Source: a virus. From it: a DNA stretch of 21,076 nucleotides. Each line of letters opens with the position of its first letter. Position 1 is the first letter of the stretch. Under the pieces are notes generated by a model. The model ran no database searches. It saw only the letters and a list, made by a program, of their open reading frames with translations, and was not told where the DNA came from. Shown one piece after another: positions 9,118 through 16,344 of this stretch. A program made the translations under genes and the position numbers. The DNA is taken from IMG/VR virus record IMGVR_UViG_3300022074_000453, positions 1-21,076 of that record. One strand, given 5' to 3'.

Positions 9118-9345
9118 TCATTTTCTCTTAAAAGACCTATTTTTTGATCTATGTTGTAAAACTACGTTACTTCGTGAATTATTTGCAGGATTTCCATCTA
9201 TATGGTGTATATCTATTTGACTTCCTTTCCTAACCCTACCTTCTTTTAACATTTGTCTACGTATTTTATTACGAGCAGCACGTCTTTTCTTTTGTTCAGG
9301 AGAAGAATGGTAGTTTGCATATTCTCCTTTATAGTTTCTAGCCAT
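9118..9345 (-). CDS. Small HNH-type endonuclease-like phage protein (75 aa)
   Basis: A basic 75-aa protein starting MARNYKGEYANYHSSPEQKK, a start shared by many small phage HNH proteins. It has a Lys/Arg-rich N-terminal half and the HNH-like core DIHHIDGNPANN (45-56), with His47 and His48, Asp50, Asn52 and Asn60. The usual C-terminal metal-binding His is not obvious, so activity is uncertain. The role could be DNA nicking during packaging or a free-standing homing endonuclease. Its ATG follows the stop of the cyclase gene directly (TAGATG), and GAAGGTG in the cyclase 3' end serves as its ribosome-binding site. It is the last gene of the leftward block. Confidence 0.75.
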   Translation of the reverse strand: MARNYKGEYANYHSSPEQKKRRAARNKIRRQMLKEGRVRKGSQIDIHHIDGNPANNSRSNVVLQHRSKNRSFKRK

Positions 9346-11094
9346 CTATATAGTATACACCTTCAAAGCTTTTGTTTTACCTTTTACTTTTATCGTATCG
9401 TGTAAGCAACATTTGTCTATCTTCTGTGCTGTACGTTCTCCAATCAATATATCTACACCCGCTTCTTTAGTTGCACTCTCTAATCGTGCAGCTATGTTCA
9501 CAGCATCTCCTATTGCTGAATAATCAAATCTAGTATCACTACCCATATTACCTATTATTGCTTCGCCAGTATTTATACCTATACCTATAGCTATTGGCTC
9601 AGGTAATTCAGTTTGTAACATACGTATTGCTATTCGTATGTCCTGGCCACAGGCGACAGCACGTTTTTCATGTTCATCTAAGTTTAGGGGGGAGTTAAAG
9701 ATAGCCATGCATGCGTCGCCTATGAACTTATCAACCATACCCCCGTGTGCTTGTATGCATTTGACTTGTTCAGTAAGAACTTTATTCATAATTTTAGTAA
9801 CTTGTTCTGGTTCTAATTTTTCAGATAAGTTTGTAAATCCTCTAACGTCAGTAAATAAAAACGTACAAGTTCGCTTTTCACCTCCTAACTTAAGTAACTT
9901 TGGATTATTTTGTAATCGTGCAACTTGTCTAGGATCTAAGTAATGCTCAAACTGTTTTTTAATTAACTGTCGTAGCTTAAACTGCTCATTAAATCTTAAA
10001 TAAAATTCTTGTATAGATATAAGTATAGCTGATAATATACTATAAGTTACATCTATAAGTATATTAGATGTAATTAAATACCAACCACCGACCGCGGTCA
10101 ACGACACGAGGCCCACGGTCCCTACTATGGTTCCGACCAACCCAAATGTACGTATTATAAATATTGTTAATAGTAATACTGTTACAAGTATAAGTAATTC
10201 ATATAGTAGTGCAGTGCCTGGTATTGCTGGTACGTTTACGGTCATGCTTTCAGCTAACGCAGCTTGTACATGGTGGGGGTACAATAACCCAACTGGCGTA
10301 GCTATTTGAGGCATTACACCTTTTGCACTTACCCCTACAAACACAAACTTATCTTTTACATTCATCTCATCTAAACTAGTGCTTGGGGTGTCAATCCAAG
10401 AAACCCACCTACGCCCAATGCTATCTACGGGTATCTGTGCATACCCAGCTACAGTAAGTTCTTCTATTTGGCCTTGCTGTCCTTTAATTATGTAAGTATC
10501 TGCACCTGCCAGCATTTTGATAACCTGCACACCAAAGGATGGAGTCCAACCATCTGGAGTTTGAAGCAACAAAGGTAATCGTCTTACTAAATTATCTACA
10601 TCAGTTCGTGCAACTGCCAGCCCCTGGTAAGCAGACTCTGCTAGCACGGGCACATTTCCAATAACACCTTGAGATTCAATACCTTGTATAGGTTCTCCGT
10701 CTCCTAATATAACTGTGCCTGTAGTTGGTGCGTAAGAAGCCCCTCCTTCAAAGGTAGCAATGACACTTGGTATCTGTAAAAGTGCATCTGCAAATGCTTG
10801 ATCGCCACTAAATCTATCTTCTTGTGGGAAAGCAACAACCCAACCAACTCCTACCGCACCTGCTTCCATAAGGTTTAATTGAATACGTGCAAGATCCTGA
10901 CGAGGATATGGCCAACCGCCCGCAAGTGCTACATCTTCTTCTGTTATATCTAACGTGGTAAACCAGCCAGAAGGATCTGGTGTTTGTACGAGGGCGTCAA
11001 ATGTTTTTAGTTTAAGAACTTCTAATGCTTGCCAGTTAAAAAGTAACGGCACACAAAGTATAGGTATGCTAATTAACGAAATCCATTTCTTCAC
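9346..11094 (-). CDS. Membrane-bound CHASE2-domain class III adenylate cyclase
   Basis: A 582-aa sensor cyclase. It has an N-terminal membrane segment (5-20), then a periplasmic CHASE2-like domain (about 25-285) with typical features (LKTFDAL, WPYPRQDLARI, VGVGWVVAFP, DKFVFVGVSA). Three membrane helices follow (about 296-315, 318-340, 346-362), then a linker and a catalytic domain (about 405-582). Catalytic residues are intact: metal-binding Asp416 (FTDVRGF) and Asp460 (FIGD), substrate Lys456, Ser526 at the base-selecting position (DYSAIGD), and Asn533 and Arg537 for the transition state. Lys with Ser/Thr fits the ATP-using class IIIb pattern, so cAMP is the likely product. The start is a GTG seven bases after AAGGAGG. 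It follows the FecR stop by one base. An enzyme of this kind is highly unusual in a phage. Confidence 0.93.
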   Translation of the reverse strand: MKKWISLISIPILCVPLLFNWQALEVLKLKTFDALVQTPDPSGWFTTLDITEEDVALAGGWPYPRQDLARIQLNLMEAGAVGVGWVVAFPQEDRFSGDQAFADALLQIPSVIATFEGGASYAPTTGTVILGDGEPIQGIESQGVIGNVPVLAESAYQGLAVARTDVDNLVRRLPLLLQTPDGWTPSFGVQVIKMLAGADTYIIKGQQGQIEELTVAGYAQIPVDSIGRRWVSWIDTPSTSLDEMNVKDKFVFVGVSAKGVMPQIATPVGLLYPHHVQAALAESMTVNVPAIPGTALLYELLILVTVLLLTIFIIRTFGLVGTIVGTVGLVSLTAVGGWYLITSNILIDVTYSILSAILISIQEFYLRFNEQFKLRQLIKKQFEHYLDPRQVARLQNNPKLLKLGGEKRTCTFLFTDVRGFTNLSEKLEPEQVTKIMNKVLTEQVKCIQAHGGMVDKFIGDACMAIFNSPLNLDEHEKRAVACGQDIRIAIRMLQTELPEPIAIGIGINTGEAIIGNMGSDTRFDYSAIGDAVNIAARLESATKEAGVDILIGERTAQKIDKCCLHDTIKVKGKTKALKVYTI

Positions 11095-11095
11095 C

Positions 11096-12214
11096 TTATC
11101 CTCCTTGAGTGATTGTTATAATAGAATCTCCTCCACCATTAATTTTAACAACGTTAGAAACTCCATCTTGTATAAATATTACTGTATAAGACTCACTTCC
11201 ATTTACATCTAGTTGTACAGACTCACTTACACTTCTTCTTAAGCTTACTACATTTCCTGTTATTAATGTAGTAATTTGTGTATCAGGGTCTTTGCCCAAC
11301 AAAGTCCCAGTTATTTGCGTGCTGGTGGCTTGTGCTAGCTGGTCTTCTTCCTCTGCGACAGCTAAAGCATCTAATACATTCAACAGATCTTCAAGATAGT
11401 TGACATCTAAAAAGTTTATATCTAGTTCTGTAAACTCTAAATCATCTTCACCTAAGTAATCTACATCTAAATAATCAATATCAAGTTCGTTAAAATCCAA
11501 TACGCTTTCGCTTTGTGTAGCTGTGGACTCTTCTGTGGATAACTTTTCTTTCTCAGGTGGTGTAACAATCAACATATTGTCTATAACATCAAGAGTTAAA
11601 TCTAAAATAACTGGTTTAGTTGGGGCTGATTCGTATACAGAAACGGTAGTAGCCTGGTATGGTTTGTTCAGTAAAACCGTGCCCATAGCGGTAACTACCT
11701 CTATTTCACCACTAGATAATCCATAAGGGTCAGGTAGTAAAATAATTAAACTACGGCCTAGCTCATCTACTGTAGCAGTAAAGTCTGTACCCCTAATTGC
11801 TATGTCAGCTGTGGGTGTGGATAACTTTATATTGCTCTTGTTTATTTTGTTTAAATTACTACTAATAAACCTAGCTGTGCCAAGGCCAAAGGTAAGGGCC
11901 ATTTTTGACTTACTTGGGTCAGGGTCGAATACATACTCTGTGATAACCAACTTAGAGTGCTCAGTTAGTTTTACTATAGAATCATCAAGAAAGGTGATGG
12001 CCATACGGCCGTCTCTAGTAATAGCTTCATCATTGCTTTGTATAGCAAATTTTAAATTAGCGTCGTACGGTTTGTCTCTTACTATTTGAGCTGAACCATT
12101 TAGCTCAGATATATCTCCAATATTAGCAGCTTGTGCTTGTACCTTGGTCGTTTTGAACGACACAAACAGTAGAAGAAGCGTTGCCACCAATTGATATAAT
12201 TTTAAGCCAGTCAT
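11096..12214 (-). CDS. Exported FecR-domain protein with acidic repeats and curlin-like C-terminus
   Basis: A 372-aa protein with a signal peptide (hydrophobic 9-20, likely cleavage after QAQA near 29). Residues about 35-195 form a FecR-type domain (AITRDGRMAITFLDDSIVKL; STPTADIAIRGTDFTATVD). Residues 241-280 hold two tandem 20-residue acidic repeats (FNELDIDYLDVDYL and FTELDINFLDVNYL). The C-terminal IFIQDGVSNVVKING (346-360) and SIITITQGG fit the curlin Q-x-G-x-x-N pattern. FecR domains of this kind bind surface or signal partners in the periplasm or outside the cell. As I recall, they are often encoded beside CHASE2 cyclases in bacteria, as here. The ATG lies inside the preceding curlin-like gene (92-base overlap); only this start keeps the signal peptide. 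No other role is visible. Confidence 0.85.
   Translation of the reverse strand: MTGLKLYQLVATLLLLFVSFKTTKVQAQAANIGDISELNGSAQIVRDKPYDANLKFAIQSNDEAITRDGRMAITFLDDSIVKLTEHSKLVITEYVFDPDPSKSKMALTFGLGTARFISSNLNKINKSNIKLSTPTADIAIRGTDFTATVDELGRSLIILLPDPYGLSSGEIEVVTAMGTVLLNKPYQATTVSVYESAPTKPVILDLTLDVIDNMLIVTPPEKEKLSTEESTATQSESVLDFNELDIDYLDVDYLGEDDLEFTELDINFLDVNYLEDLLNVLDALAVAEEEDQLAQATSTQITGTLLGKDPDTQITTLITGNVVSLRRSVSESVQLDVNGSESYTVIFIQDGVSNVVKINGGGDSIITITQGG
11375..11494 (-). repeat. Two tandem 60-bp repeats encoding acidic 20-residue units
   Basis: The repeats encode residues 241-260 and 261-280 of the FecR-domain protein. Both share the pattern F-x-E-L-D-I-x-x-L-D-V-x-Y-L. The nucleotide copies have diverged but are in frame. 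The units could form an acidic calcium- or partner-binding spacer between the FecR domain and the curlin-like tail. Confidence 0.6.
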
Positions 12215-12848
12215 TATCTTGGGTACTCAGTTGTTGAATATTAAATGTTCTTTGTCCACCTGTATGGTCTAAGTAAAAATATCCACCAGCTGATGCATTC
12301 ACACCTGTACCTGTATAAGTAACCGCATTGTCTGAACCGTCTATATCCATATAGTTAGTTGCCCCATCAATATTTATATTTGATGTAACTGTGTTGTTAG
12401 AACCTTGAATAATCCAATCTAAATCTAAACTAGCTGCTAAAGCAGTAGTGCCTTGGTTTAAGGTAAATGTGTTACCACTACCTGTAACTGAAACGTTTTG
12501 ATTAGAACCGTTAGCTCCGTACGTGTTGGTTGGATCAACCTGAATAGTGAACGTGTTCGTAGAACCAGTAAAATTATAAACACCAGTAAAACTGTCTGCT
12601 AAAATATCACCAAGAAACTTGTTAGTGTTTCCAATCATATTTATGTCTAAAGTTAGACCCGTGCCGTCTAAATCAAACGCAGTCAAATTGCCTGCTGTAG
12701 ATTGTAAACCGCCTATGATGTTAGAAATACCTAGTTGTTCTAGGTCTATGTTAGCGCCAGTACCTGACTGGTCAACATATATCTCGTTGTCTGCTCCAGT
12801 AACTCCTATACAAAAAACAGCAAGTAGACTTATAAGCTTGTTTTTCAT
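12123..12848 (-). CDS. Secreted curlin-repeat (CsgA/CsgB-like) protein
   Basis: A 241-aa exported protein. Residues 1-19 form a signal peptide (MKNKLISLLAVFCIGVTGA). Residues 21-45 (NEIYVDQSGTGANIDLEQLG, then ISNII) are a textbook curlin repeat with the Q-x-G-x-x-N spacing. Further looser units follow through residue 180, with recurrent GSxNT/GSGNT turns near 95, 123, 149 and 171, between short beta-strand-like stretches. The composition is rich in Gly, Asn, Thr and Ser. Two cysteines close the protein (229 and 241). The likely role is the amyloid-like or beta-solenoid substrate exported through the CsgG pore encoded just upstream. The repeats are less regular than in E. coli CsgA, so it may be a nucleator or an adhesin rather than the main fibre. 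A GAGGT site lies in the csgG end. Confidence 0.82.
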   Translation of the reverse strand: MKNKLISLLAVFCIGVTGADNEIYVDQSGTGANIDLEQLGISNIIGGLQSTAGNLTAFDLDGTGLTLDINMIGNTNKFLGDILADSFTGVYNFTGSTNTFTIQVDPTNTYGANGSNQNVSVTGSGNTFTLNQGTTALAASLDLDWIIQGSNNTVTSNINIDGATNYMDIDGSDNAVTYTGTGVNASAGGYFYLDHTGGQRTFNIQQLSTQDNDWLKIISIGGNASSTVCVVQNDQGTSTSC

Positions 12849-12853
12849 AATAA

Positions 12854-13690
12854 TTATTCTACCTCTTCAATTTCATCTTGTCTATTCCAATATTTTTTCT
12901 CATATCCAAGATTAACTATTTCTAATATACCGCCTTCAATCGCTTTCATTAAAGCAATTGTAGATGACTCGTTTCTAGCATTACCAAACTCTACCTCTAC
13001 TAGTTCTGTCCCAGCTTCTATAAATCTAAACACATCTTCAGATCTACCATAACTAAATATAGTTTTTTGACTTAACACCTCTAATAAAACCTCACCTGTA
13101 GCTACAGAAACCATACGTAAACTTACAGTAATGTTATCTTCTCTATACTGCACACTGCTACCTATGCCAAGATACCTAGCTCCTGATCCACCACTTTCTA
13201 AATTAGCTTCGTAGGATATAACAGCACCTTCTATTAGTATGCCTGCAAATAATAAAGGCGCTAATTGTTTTTTCTTTTCTTCTTCGGTTGCAAATTGTTC
13301 TCTAGCGCTACGAATCAGCTGTCTTTCCTTTGTGAGGTTGTCCAGTCCTACCCGTTCAACTACCCTAAAAAATTGACCATTGCCTGCATGTTTAAGGGCT
13401 CTTATAAGTAGTGCGTTGGGTTGTTGAGTAATAGCAGTACTAAATAAAGCAAACTCGCTATTGCTTTTTCTTTGTCCTGTTTGGTCGGTAAAGGCGGTAG
13501 GGTATACAGCTACTACTGGGCTTACTTTTGGTATAGGTACATTTTTAAGTTCAGCAGACTGCAGGCTTTGAATGTTTACAACATTATATGCAGAAAATCT
13601 ATTCTCATAAGTGTCTTCAAGTTGGTCGAGTGTGGAGCAACTAGAAAGTAAAAGTACCAATAGGTATTGTGATTTCTGTAACTGTGCCAT
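12854..13690 (-). CDS. csgG: CsgG, outer-membrane curli secretion channel lipoprotein
   Basis: A 278-aa protein that is clearly CsgG. It has a lipoprotein signal with lipobox LSSC (Cys18), then VVAVYPTAFTDQTGQRK (59-75), FFRVVERVGLDNLTKERQLI (107-126), ILIEGAVISYEANLESGGSG (151-170), ARYLGIGSSVQY and VSVATGEVL. CsgG forms a nonameric beta-barrel pore in the outer membrane that exports curli subunits. In the constriction loop the equivalent of E. coli Phe56 is kept (Phe83, LFSTAI), but Tyr51 and Asn55 are not. Length is normal for the family. The gene overlaps csgF by 50 bases and is followed by the curlin-like gene five bases on. The order csgF-csgG-curlin suggests a working export unit, although CsgE is absent in the window. 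Confidence 0.95.
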   Translation of the reverse strand: MAQLQKSQYLLVLLLSSCSTLDQLEDTYENRFSAYNVVNIQSLQSAELKNVPIPKVSPVVAVYPTAFTDQTGQRKSNSEFALFSTAITQQPNALLIRALKHAGNGQFFRVVERVGLDNLTKERQLIRSAREQFATEEEKKKQLAPLLFAGILIEGAVISYEANLESGGSGARYLGIGSSVQYREDNITVSLRMVSVATGEVLLEVLSQKTIFSYGRSEDVFRFIEAGTELVEVEFGNARNESSTIALMKAIEGGILEIVNLGYEKKYWNRQDEIEEVE

Positions 13691-14156
13691 CTGCTTCCGT
13701 TATTTTTAAGGTTAGTGTTACGCCATCGCTAGTATACTCTATAGTGTTACCTTCTAGGGTTATAGTACCTTCTGTGCTTGGCGTTTCTCCAAACAAGTTA
13801 TTTACTAACTGCCTTGATAACTCTGCGTATACTCTTGATTCTAGGTTACGCATAAATCTTGCAAGGGTAGAGTTTTCTTTTTCTCTTTCCATTTCTTCTT
13901 GTAAAGCTTTTATCTCTTCTTTAATGGTTAGCTTACGGCTAAACTCTTGGTTTTCTATAGTAAGGTAATGCGAGCTAGTGCCTACGCCATTAAAACTAGG
14001 TGATTTAAATTTGTGCGTAATAGTATCTGCTTTTAGATTTGTAACAAATATACCCACGATTAATATAATCGCAATGACTACTGCACCTTGTGCAATTCTA
14101 AGTTTTTCTTTTTGTTCTTGCACTAATTGTTTTTTTGTTTTCTTTTTTTTCTTCAT
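13641..14156 (-). CDS. csgF: CsgF-like curli assembly factor with membrane-anchor N-terminus
   Basis: The 171-aa protein shows the CsgF signature after its hydrophobic segment: DTITHKFKSPSFNG (44-57), matching the CsgF N-terminus that plugs into CsgG. A region with FMRNLESRVYAELSRQLVNN (101-120) follows, and then beta-rich ITLEGNTIEYTSDG, TLTLKITEADGTVTEITIP. It differs from ordinary CsgF by a Lys-rich 20-residue leader (MKKKKKTKKQ) before the hydrophobic stretch (23-38) and by a charged coiled-coil insert (about 75-98). LKA at 41-43 could be a signal peptidase site; otherwise the protein stays anchored in the inner membrane. CsgF normally caps the CsgG pore at the cell surface. The start has an AGAGGT site and overlaps the upstream gene by 59 bases. 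Confidence 0.85.
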   Translation of the reverse strand: MKKKKKTKKQLVQEQKEKLRIAQGAVVIAIILIVGIFVTNLKADTITHKFKSPSFNGVGTSSHYLTIENQEFSRKLTIKEEIKALQEEMEREKENSTLARFMRNLESRVYAELSRQLVNNLFGETPSTEGTITLEGNTIEYTSDGVTLTLKITEADGTVTEITIPIGTFTF

Positions 14157-14409
14157 TTTCTAATACCTCTTTATTCTTGTTTTTTAAAACAGTATTAACC
14201 TTTGTTTGTAATCGTATCATATCTTGATCTAACAGGCGAAGTTGATCGGTCAATCGTATAATCGTCATTTTCATTTCTTCTACTGCTGGGTTAATAGTAT
14301 TGTTTACTGTAGTCCAAACGTAATACACAAAATAACCTAGGCCAACGACCATAACTACAGGGAAACCAAAGTCAGCAATTAGCTGAGCTACACTAATCTC
14401 GCCTTGCAT
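14098..14409 (-). CDS. Small membrane protein with C-terminal coiled coil, holin-like (copy A)
   Basis: A 103-aa protein with a short N-terminus, one membrane helix (about 14-35, PVVMVVGLGYFVYYVWTTV) and a charged coiled coil (40-80), ending in a very basic tail (ENKKTISARTKRKT). This topology resembles YvrJ/BhlA-type small phage membrane proteins that are often called holins. It is paralogous to the next gene upstream (14393-14686): both share LIAxxGxP, a YF in the helix, and DMIRLQTKV versus DIIRIDTSV. The gene overlaps csgF by 59 bases and its partner by 17. A lysis role is likely but not shown. Confidence 0.7.
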   Translation of the reverse strand: MQGEISVAQLIADFGFPVVMVVGLGYFVYYVWTTVNNTINPAVEEMKMTIIRLTDQLRLLDQDMIRLQTKVNTVLKNKNKEVLENEEKKENKKTISARTKRKT

Positions 14410-14686
14410 CTATCTTGCCGTCTTCAACAAAATTTTCTGCTCTAGCTATTCTATCTAAGTCTGGAGGTAAGTTGAGTGCGCTAGATACTGATGTATCAAT
14501 GCGAATGATATCGTTGTTCATAATGGATGCTCTGGTTATAAGCATTTTTGTAATTCCTTGCACCGTTTTTATTTCATCAACTAAACTGCACATTAATTGT
14601 TTCATTACAAGGAATATGAAATATGCCATAACCAAAGCACCAGCAATCGGTACTCCAACCTCAGCTATGAGGTTGAATATTTCCAT
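14393..14686 (-). CDS. Small membrane protein, holin-like (copy B)
   Basis: A 97-aa protein with an N-terminal membrane helix (about 8-29, VPIAGALVMAYFIFLVMKQL), then an amphipathic or coiled region (35-70) and an acidic/basic tail. It is the paralogue of the gene at 14098-14409 and probably arose by tandem duplication. The ATG overlaps the stop of the holin-like gene upstream (TAATG). Paired membrane proteins of this size in a lysis cassette may form a holin/antiholin or pinholin-like set, which is inference. Confidence 0.7.
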   Translation of the reverse strand: MEIFNLIAEVGVPIAGALVMAYFIFLVMKQLMCSLVDEIKTVQGITKMLITRASIMNNDIIRIDTSVSSALNLPPDLDRIARAENFVEDGKIDARRD

Positions 14687-15072
14687 TACTTATCTTCGCC
14701 CTTGAAGCTTTTAGATGCTCCTGAAGTTCCCGCATACAAACCAAACCAAGCTGCTCCTGCACCTACAACAATAGATATAAGACCTGATTGTTCAAAGCTC
14801 GGTTCTGGTAAATCCATAAACCACATAACAGTTGTATACAATAATATTATATACACAGTTAAAAACATTCTCGGAAATATTCTCCAAGAGTCTACAGCTT
14901 GTGCTAAATGAATCCATTTTTGATGTGGATTAACATTTGTAACATCTTCTAATTCTCTAATCTTATCTTTTAATGCAGATATCTCTTGAATCATAGCCAT
15001 GAACTTATTAAGGTCCATCTCTACTTCGTTACGATCCATGTCTCCGCCAAATCTTCCTTGTCCATCATTCAT
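14686..15072 (-). CDS. Holin-like membrane protein (128 aa)
   Basis: A soluble, charged N-terminus (1-60) with a coiled coil (KFMAMIQEISALKDKIRELE) is followed by two membrane helices (about 66-86 and 96-114). The membrane part reads WRIFPRMFLTVYIILLY and ISIVVGAGAAWFGLYAGTS. This arrangement is common in marine phages as a putative holin. The start overlaps the nuclease stop as TAATG. Neighbouring spanins and small membrane proteins support a lysis role, forming inner-membrane holes at the end of infection. No endolysin is seen in this window. Confidence 0.7.
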   Translation of the reverse strand: MNDGQGRFGGDMDRNEVEMDLNKFMAMIQEISALKDKIRELEDVTNVNPHQKWIHLAQAVDSWRIFPRMFLTVYIILLYTTVMWFMDLPEPSFEQSGLISIVVGAGAAWFGLYAGTSGASKSFKGEDK

Positions 15073-15452
15073 TAGTAATCACCCCATATTTTAGTTTTCT
15101 TTCCGCCTTCATAAATAACTGCATGCCCCTCGTCTATAAGCATTTGACAAATATCTTTGCCCTCTTCTGTATATGGTATACCCAGTATACGGCCATATTT
15201 TCCTTTACCAAGAGACTTAACCTTTATACTACCTACACAAAGTTCTTTAAGTCTTTCTTTAGCAGCAAGGCCTAGTTTCTTTTCTGCTAAGTCTCGTGTT
15301 CTTGATTCTGGGGTGTCTATCCCAGCCAACCGTACTCTTTGCTTGTGTAACTTAACGTCAAACCCAAGGTCGAGCGAACAGTCAAAGGTGTCCCCATCAA
15401 CGATTCGCTCCAAGGTTGCGTTATAAACAAAAGCATCTGGTGCTTGTGCCAT
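15072..15452 (-). CDS. Staphylococcal-nuclease-like (SNase) enzyme
   Basis: A compact 126-aa thermonuclease homologue. All key residues of the family can be placed: Asp21 (VDGDTF), Arg41 (VRLAGID), Asp46, Thr47 and Glu49 (DTPES), and Arg88 (YGRIL). These match staphylococcal Asp21, Arg35, Asp40, Thr41, Glu43 and Arg87. The enzyme should cut DNA or RNA in a calcium-dependent way. There is no signal peptide, so it would act inside the cell, for example degrading host nucleic acid, unless released at lysis. The ATG is preceded by AAAGGAGAAG and sits directly after the stop of the 55-aa gene. Confidence 0.92.
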   Translation of the reverse strand: MAQAPDAFVYNATLERIVDGDTFDCSLDLGFDVKLHKQRVRLAGIDTPESRTRDLAEKKLGLAAKERLKELCVGSIKVKSLGKGKYGRILGIPYTEEGKDICQMLIDEGHAVIYEGGKKTKIWGDY

Positions 15453-15659: not shown

Positions 15660-16043
15660 TTATTCTTCTTTTTCATTAACTGTTACCTTTCTATAGTAAA
15701 CAACAACATCTTTAAGTTCGGTTATGTATCTTTTAATTTCTTGCATGTTGTATGCCATAGTCTCGTAATCGGGTACGGTCATAGCTAAAAATACTAGTTC
15801 ACCTTCTTGTTCTTCTATAAGAGCAAACTGTTCCTCAAAGTTTTCTGGGGTTATAGTAAGCCACCTAACTTGCTTAAGGTCTATTTCTCTTGGCATAACT
15901 GGTTGCACTATGGTTCTATCCATAGGTTTAGCAGTTACTTCTATCTGTTTAGTCGGAAGTAGGCTGCAACTGCAAGCCATCATCAAGATCATCAACAGTA
16001 GCGCTGATGTTCTCAATGTCTTCCATGATATGTTTTGTACCAT
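15660..16043 (-). CDS. Putative outer-membrane spanin (Rz1-like lipoprotein)
   Basis: A 127-aa protein with an N-terminal signal (ALLLMILMMACSC) containing a loose lipobox before Cys24 or Cys26. A proline-rich stretch follows (PTKQ...KPMDRTIVQPVMP), then a conserved domain with DLKQVRWLTITPENFEEQF, LVFLAMTVPDYETMAYN and RYITELKDVVVYY. It starts inside the 3' end of the upstream i-spanin-like gene (95-base overlap in another frame), the classic Rz/Rz1 arrangement. AAGGAAG precedes the start. It would sit in the outer membrane and pair with the i-spanin to fuse the membranes at lysis. It is longer than lambda Rz1, so the assignment rests on signal, topology and gene overlap. Confidence 0.65.
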   Translation of the reverse strand: MVQNISWKTLRTSALLLMILMMACSCSLLPTKQIEVTAKPMDRTIVQPVMPREIDLKQVRWLTITPENFEEQFALIEEQEGELVFLAMTVPDYETMAYNMQEIKRYITELKDVVVYYRKVTVNEKEE

Positions 16044-16344
16044 TATTTATCTTCCTTTGCATGTCAACTGGGTCACCCATAATTTTGTCACTCAGTTCGT
16101 AGTTTTTAATAAATTCTGAATATCTGTTTAATTCTCTTTGTGCTGCTTGACTCTTTACCGTCATGTTTTGTAGCTCTGTAGTTTGTAAAGCAAAGTCATT
16201 TTGTAAAGAAGCTATTGCTTCTTCTTGTGTAGCTACAGCGCCCTCTAGTTGTAGGTTATTTTGTTTTAAAGTTATGTTTTCTTGGTAGAGCCAATAACCA
16301 CCTAACCCCAAAACTATAATAATACCTATTAAAACTTGTTGCAT
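15949..16344 (-). CDS. Putative inner-membrane spanin (Rz-like)
   Basis: A 131-aa protein with an N-terminal membrane anchor (4-20, VLIGIIIVLGLGGYWLY) and a long coiled coil facing the periplasm (25-90, for example QEEAIASLQNDFALQ). Then come GDPVDMQRKINNGTKHIMED and a C-terminal acidic helix. This is the topology of Rz-type i-spanins. The ATG overlaps the previous stop as TAATG with GAGGA just upstream. The overlap with the lipoprotein gene that follows supports the spanin-pair interpretation. Confidence 0.75.
   Translation of the reverse strand: MQQVLIGIIIVLGLGGYWLYQENITLKQNNLQLEGAVATQEEAIASLQNDFALQTTELQNMTVKSQAAQRELNRYSEFIKNYELSDKIMGDPVDMQRKINNGTKHIMEDIENISATVDDLDDGLQLQPTSD

What the first reader, a model, noticed from the sequence alone, without database searches (positions are those of the whole stretch)
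9346..14156. A phage late operon carries a curli-type export unit linked to a FecR protein and a CHASE2 cyclase
Five consecutive leftward genes encode CsgF, CsgG, a secreted curlin-repeat protein, an exported FecR-domain protein and a transmembrane CHASE2 class III cyclase. They overlap or abut each other and sit between phage lysis genes and the end of the late block, so they are part of the phage. I recall reports of csgG/csgF-like genes in marine phages, but not of the full set with a substrate, a FecR protein and a cyclase. Possible roles (inference): building an adhesive or amyloid layer on infected cells, blocking superinfection, sensing the surface and raising cAMP, or an adapted lysis channel.
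Basis: partly seen in the sequence, partly recalled or inferred. Interest (0 to 1): 0.92.

Follow-up and report, generated by a model that had tools for sequence, protein, structure and literature searches.

The report
Marine phage curli-export gene cassette
A marine phage carries a compact set of genes for exporting a curli-like fibre protein plus a membrane cAMP-making sensor; the set was already published in other ocean phages, but this phage belongs to a different lineage that has swapped part of the set with them.

Summary
Five leftward genes at 9346-14156 encode CsgF, CsgG, a curlin-like repeat protein, a FecR-domain protein and a CHASE2 class III adenylyl cyclase. They sit between phage spanin/nuclease genes and the convergent replication genes. 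The contig is not a chimaera: independent contigs share both junctions. In IMG/VR, 71 of 71 loci with room carry all five genes in the same order, and 103 of 103 have one or two small membrane-protein genes directly upstream.

The novelty claim fails. The same set, with substrate, FecR and cyclase, was published in 2022 for HTVC023P-type pelagi-podophages and pelagimyophages (PMC9599517), and it is annotated in cultured HTVC008M and Melnitz.

New here: (i) this phage is not HTVC023P-type, so a further lineage carries the cassette; (ii) its CsgF-CsgG-curlin-FecR block is near HTVC023P-type phages while its cyclase follows its own lineage, so the block was swapped and FecR travels with curli, not with the cyclase; (iii) the FecR protein ends in a curlin-like stretch; (iv) the upstream genes, probably the published 'histidine kinases', lack an HATPase domain; (v) the SAR11-type family almost lacks cAMP receptors.

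Best reading: late secretion of a curlin coat on infected cells. Its function is untested.

The parts
14393..14686 (-). Small membrane protein 1 (97 aa, one TM helix, phrog_18771); first gene of the cassette
   Evidence: at least one such gene in 103/103 loci with room upstream of CsgF; no kinase domain
14098..14409 (-). Small membrane protein 2 (103 aa, one TM helix, phrog_18771; weak similarity to a holin family, phrog_4898)
13641..14156 (-). CsgF (171 aa)
   Evidence: PF10614 E 2.8e-16; phrog_35372 E 2.9e-43
12854..13690 (-). CsgG pore lipoprotein (278 aa), lipobox Cys18
   Evidence: PF03783 E 1.8e-47; solved CsgG E 2.3e-45; Cys18 invariant in 16 relatives
12123..12848 (-). Curlin-like secreted repeat protein (241 aa), probable export substrate
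   Evidence: Curlin_rpt in 13/30 relatives; beta-solenoid model, pLDDT 83
11096..12214 (-). Exported FecR-domain protein (372 aa): FecR domain, acidic linker, C-terminal beta domain with curlin-like end
   Evidence: PF04773 E 3.5e-8; model and matches to PupR and an adhesin anchoring domain; C-terminus against curlin
9346..11094 (-). CHASE2 class III adenylyl cyclase (582 aa)
   Evidence: PF05226 E 9e-29, PF00211 E 3e-20; catalytic residues conserved
15660..16344 (-). Context: overlapping Rz/Rz1-like spanin genes upstream of the cassette
   Evidence: phrog_812 and phrog_739
15072..15452 (-). Context: SNase-like nuclease
   Evidence: PF00565 E 9.2e-14
9118..9345 (-). Context: small HNH-like ORF that ends the late block
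   Evidence: phrog_4590 E 2.7e-13, HNH families

Best explanation
The cassette is a phage-borne type VIII (curli-type) secretion unit with an attached signalling cyclase, expressed late (inferred from its place in the late block). Shown from sequence: a CsgG-type lipoprotein pore, CsgF, a curlin-repeat substrate, an exported FecR-domain protein and a CHASE2 adenylyl cyclase with intact catalytic residues, always together and in order. Inferred: the host Sec pathway exports the proteins; CsgG and CsgF form an outer-membrane pore that releases the curlin-like beta-solenoid, which assembles on the surface of the infected cell. The FecR protein acts with the curlin (anchor, nucleator or substrate monitor), since it ends in a curlin-like stretch and travels with the curli genes. 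The CHASE2 cyclase reads an envelope signal and makes cAMP, but through a target other than CRP if the host is SAR11-like. The most likely benefit is altering the infected cell's surface (shielding against superinfection, or holding neighbouring cells or virions close) rather than lysis itself.
For: Complete set in 71/71 loci with room, no mixed strands, overlapping ORFs. CsgG conserved along its length, lipobox Cys invariant. Curlin repeats in relatives and a confident beta-solenoid model. Cyclase metal and substrate residues conserved. FecR domain matches the PupR periplasmic signalling domain and an adhesin cell-surface anchoring domain; its C-terminus resembles the curlin C-terminus. CsgF-CsgG-curlin-FecR were exchanged as a block between phage lineages without the cyclase. 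The SAR11-type family lacks its own CsgG (2/99, both on phage contigs). Published expression in ocean metatranscriptomes (PMC9599517).
Against: No experiment shows fibres; Melnitz infection gave no visible clumping (PMC9004378). No CsgE or CsgC was found. The curlin-like protein of the window itself has no significant Pfam curlin hit and no significant Foldseek match. Pore-constriction residues differ from E. coli CsgG. Position near spanins is equally compatible with a lysis role. The cAMP target is unknown. The host of this phage is not established.
Confidence: 0.5

Rival explanations
1. CsgG-CsgF is repurposed as a lysis-timing channel (secretin or pinholin analogue), as proposed for Melnitz; the cassette lies in the lysis region and starts with holin-like membrane proteins.
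For: Spanins lie next to the cassette, on either side in different phages; small one-TM proteins always precede CsgF, one with weak holin similarity; proposal in PMC9004378.
Against: A curlin-like substrate gene and FecR protein are present in every complete locus, which a bare channel would not need; the Melnitz argument assumed no fibre gene, whereas its own record annotates two curlin-repeat genes.
Confidence: 0.2
2. CsgG is an ungated import pore that lets scarce nutrients or cofactors into the infected cell, with FecR and the cyclase sensing the envelope (suggested in PMC9599517 and PMC7029224).
For: No CsgE gate; FecR is known from iron-citrate signalling; proposals.
Against: Does not explain CsgF, the curlin-like protein present in every complete locus, or the curlin-like end of FecR. 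The FecR domain is a general periplasmic module also found in long repeat proteins, not a mark of iron uptake.
Confidence: 0.1
3. FecR and the CHASE2 cyclase form a dedicated sensor pair that regulates the curli unit, like FecR plus CHASE2 kinase in the Burkholderia biofilm operon.
For: FecR genes lie beside CHASE2 cyclases in 8 of 16 alphaproteobacterial loci (two of them picked because FecR was known); a FecR/LysM protein with a CHASE2 kinase lies in an operon needed for biofilm in PMC5192318; the two genes are adjacent here.
Against: In this phage FecR was exchanged together with the curli genes and separately from the cyclase; the SAR11-type family and the phages lack CRP-type cAMP receptors.
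Confidence: 0.2

Closest known systems
T8SS cassette of HTVC023P-type pelagi-podophages (PMC9599517, 2022)
   Same: CsgF-CsgG-CsgA/B-FecR-(second curlin)-adenylate cyclase in the same order, with one or two genes before CsgF
   Different: The window phage shares almost no core genes with HTVC023P; its cyclase follows another lineage; the genes before CsgF lack the HATPase domain of a histidine kinase; the cyclase is recognised here as CHASE2-type
Cassette of Pelagibacter phage HTVC008M and Methylophilales phage Melnitz (PMC7029224, PMC9004378)
   Same: Same genes in the same order, with small membrane-protein genes before CsgF
   Different: T4-like myophages; an extra curlin gene between FecR and cyclase; proteins only 32-43% identical for CsgG, FecR and cyclase
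Bacterial curli (type VIII) operons
   Same: CsgG, CsgF and curlin-repeat proteins
   Different: In 10 cellular CsgF loci no FecR, CHASE2 cyclase or small membrane gene was found nearby; no CsgE, CsgC or CsgD here
FecR plus CHASE2 signalling loci, e.g. the Burkholderia BiofilmReg operon (PMC5192318)
   Same: A periplasmic FecR protein encoded near a CHASE2 membrane sensor
   Different: There the CHASE2 protein is a histidine kinase with a response regulator; here it is an adenylyl cyclase and FecR is tied to the curli genes

Membership tests
Type VIII (curli) secretion system | CsgG-type outer-membrane lipoprotein pore | tested here: met
   PF03783 E 1.8e-47, solved CsgG E 2.3e-45, lipobox Cys invariant
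Type VIII (curli) secretion system | CsgF | tested here: met
   PF10614 E 2.8e-16, above cut-off
Type VIII (curli) secretion system | Curlin-repeat substrate | tested here: inconclusive
   Window protein has no significant hit; 13/30 relatives hit Curlin_rpt; beta-solenoid model
Type VIII (curli) secretion system | Secretion and assembly of surface amyloid | not testable with these tools
   Needs an experiment
Published pelagiphage T8SS cassette | Conserved order CsgF-CsgG-curlin-FecR-cyclase | tested here: met
   Window and 71/71 loci with room; HTVC008M and Melnitz
Published pelagiphage T8SS cassette | Histidine kinase gene before CsgF, as reported in PMC9599517 | tested here: not met
   Small one-TM proteins; no HATPase_c in 20 phage records, no kinase family hit. 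That the paper means these genes is inferred from position
HTVC023P-type phage | Shared core genes | tested here: not met
   Only a 24% polymerase match to HTVC023P (50 of 61 kb compared); no locus carries both gene sets
Class III adenylyl cyclase | Two metal Asp, purine-binding Lys, transition-state Asn and Arg | tested here: met
   D416, D460, K456, N533, R537 present; all but N533 invariant in 11 sequences; residue roles from knowledge of the family
Class III adenylyl cyclase | cAMP production | not testable with these tools
   Needs an assay

The most novel reading that the evidence does not exclude
The exported FecR protein is a structural partner of the curlin, an anchor or nucleator with a curlin-like tail; the four-gene block CsgF-CsgG-curlin-FecR is a unit that moves between unrelated marine phages; and the cyclase makes cAMP in hosts without CRP-type receptors, acting through an undescribed target.
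Probability: 0.2. Interest if true: 0.7.

Novelty: new member of a known kind. Interest (0 to 1): 0.4.

Why it matters
Very small ocean bacteria that appear to lack curli genes would acquire a surface-protein export line only when infected. The cassette was known; this analysis shows that a further phage lineage carries it, that parts are exchanged between lineages, that FecR travels with the curlin genes rather than the cyclase, and that a published 'histidine kinase' label probably needs correction. These points narrow what should be tested at the bench.

Tried and rejected
Chimaeric contig: rejected, both junctions recur on independent contigs. HTVC023P-type identity: rejected. Cellular origin of the whole five-gene set: the CsgG search of genome contigs returned mainly phage contigs binned into marine MAGs, and 10 cellular CsgF loci had no FecR or cyclase nearby; distant FecR homologues could have been missed at that threshold. 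Phage-encoded cAMP receptor: none in 20 records, several of them fragments. Foldseek with the curlin model: no significant match; the VIA match to the CsgA fibril (8enq, Z 8.8, rmsd 8.9, 98 residues) is one of many beta-solenoids and not specific. Rfam: no RNA element, so no glutamine riboswitch in this fragment. Promoter scan: no more sites than in shuffles. Megablast to known phages: no match. CsgF against solved structures by single sequence: no match.

Full report
WHAT IS THERE. The window is a 21,076-base virus record. Rightward genes (DNA polymerase, primase, exonuclease, helicase) converge on a leftward late block with internal virion protein, tail fibre, Rz/Rz1 spanins and an SNase-like nuclease. 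The end of the late block holds two small membrane proteins and then CsgF, CsgG, a curlin-like protein, a FecR-domain protein and a CHASE2 class III cyclase, followed by a small HNH-like ORF. Pfam confirms CsgF, CsgG, FecR, CHASE2 and the cyclase domain above curated cut-offs. The curlin-like protein is assigned through relatives: Curlin_rpt hits 13 of 30, related genes occupy the same slot in HTVC008M and Melnitz, and the model is a confident beta-solenoid (pLDDT 83).

IS IT A REAL UNIT? Two IMG/VR scans gave 386 relatives of CsgG and at least 598 of the cyclase, with the best 80 loci of each kept. About 117 loci, a few contigs counted twice, carry the five genes in the same order. Of 71 loci with room for the whole set around CsgG, 71 have all five; of 103 with room upstream of CsgF, 103 have one or two of the small membrane genes; no locus has mixed strands and neighbouring ORFs overlap at the median. 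The window's own phage flanks recur beside the cassette on other contigs, e.g. L006, L007, L017, L086, L095, L097. A chimaera is excluded.

IS IT KNOWN? Yes. PMC9599517 (2022) reports, in HTVC023P-type podoviruses, CsgF, CsgG and CsgA/B, preceded by one or two 'histidine kinases' and followed by FecR, often a second curlin gene and an adenylate cyclase; the same in Myoviridae; detection at all 65 GOV2.0 stations and expression in metatranscriptomes. PMC7029224 (2020) named 'sibling capture' and PMC9004378 (2022) a lysis-timing pore, with no clumping seen. HTVC008M and Melnitz records annotate most parts.

WHAT IS ADDED. (1) Lineage. HTVC023P (50 of 61 kb fetched) shares only a 24%-identical polymerase with the window. 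Among cassette loci, 27 carry window-type core genes, 71 carry HTVC023P-type genes (65 under the stricter rule), none both. The nearest named phages for the polymerase and primase are KPP25-like Pseudomonas phages and relatives at about 30-35%.

(2) Exchange. A CsgG tree labelled by lineage needs at least four label changes on well-supported branches. The window's CsgF, CsgG, curlin and FecR have median identities of 79-86% to HTVC023P-type phages, against 58-65% to the less close members of its own lineage; the cyclase shows the reverse, 58% against 73.5%. The change of pattern falls at the FecR-cyclase border. FecR thus belongs with the export block. This also separates phage FecR from the cellular habit of lying near CHASE2 cyclases, seen in 8 of 16 alphaproteobacterial loci (two of these, L280 and L281, were brought in ahead of their rank because a FecR hit was known; 6 of 14 otherwise).

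(3) FecR architecture. AlphaFold2 gives a FecR domain, a disordered acidic linker and a C-terminal beta domain (mean pLDDT 69). The domain matches PupR (6ovk, Z 15.9, rmsd 2.4, 136 residues) and a cell-surface anchoring domain (5ix9, Z 10.0, rmsd 1.9, 72 residues). The last 40 or so residues align to the curlin C-terminus with score 26.3; 150 column shuffles reach at most 22.0 and the reversed profile 12.6; the hhalign probability is only 22%. This is a lead, not proof.

(4) 'Histidine kinase'. The genes before CsgF encode proteins of about 81-117 aa; those of the window have one TM helix each. No HATPase_c domain exists in 20 phage records including complete HTVC008M and Melnitz, while all 14 control genomes score, and no kinase family appears among ten members. 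That the paper's label refers to these genes is inferred from position and number; its figures were not available.

(5) cAMP. The catalytic residues are intact: metal Asp416 and Asp460, Lys456, Asn533, Arg537, with Ser/Thr at 526 as in class IIIb adenylyl cyclases (roles from knowledge of the family). In 99 genomes of the family of a Pelagibacter MAG, a cNMP-binding domain is found in 4, and in two of these it lies in long open frames of 870 or more codons unlike CRP; 20 phage records have none. CsgG is found in 2 of these 99, both phage-cassette contigs binned into MAGs. Host assignment of the window itself is inference.

MECHANISM. Best supported: late export of a curlin-like solenoid through CsgG-CsgF to the surface of the infected cell, with FecR as a curlin partner and the CHASE2 cyclase as an envelope sensor. 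Export competence is inferred from homology; surface assembly and benefit are not shown. CsgG keeps the family sequence, but of the E. coli constriction residues Tyr51, Asn55 and Phe56 (numbering from general knowledge) only the Phe is kept in the alignment, so pore properties may differ. The lysis-channel rival is weakened by the universal presence of a curlin-like gene, and the import rival by CsgF, curlin and the curlin-like FecR tail.

VERDICT. The window is a phage lineage not covered by that work as far as could be tested, with evidence of block exchange and one likely correction to a published annotation.

Noticed in passing
L163-L175 (genome contigs): Phage cassette contigs are binned into species genomes labelled Flavobacteriaceae, Planctomycetaceae, Synechococcus, Maricaulis, Sphingobacteriales and Pelagibacter, so surveys of csgG in marine MAGs are contaminated by phage.
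   Followed up: partly
window 12123-12214: The curlin and FecR ORFs overlap by 92 bases, so the end of the curlin gene also encodes the signal-peptide region of the FecR protein; the overlap is conserved (median -92 over 135 loci, longest-ORF starts).
   Followed up: partly
L205-L234 and L274-L289: In Alphaproteobacteria FecR domains often sit at the N-terminus of very long proteins (up to thousands of codons), frequently divergent from a CHASE2 cyclase gene.
   Followed up: partly
phage record OR851715.1: A 1,499-base unannotated record named Salmonella phage S.Kent 1-2-1 encodes a CsgG relative (41%); it may be bacterial csgG DNA mislabelled as phage.
   Followed up: no
window 14393-14686 and 14098-14409: The two small membrane proteins hit the same family (phrog_18771) but are only 18% identical, which suggests an old duplication.
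   Followed up: no
L003 (Melnitz), 12541-14592: The Melnitz cyclase has Ser where the transition-state Asn is expected (GDSVSTAARIES), so its activity may be reduced or lost.
   Followed up: no
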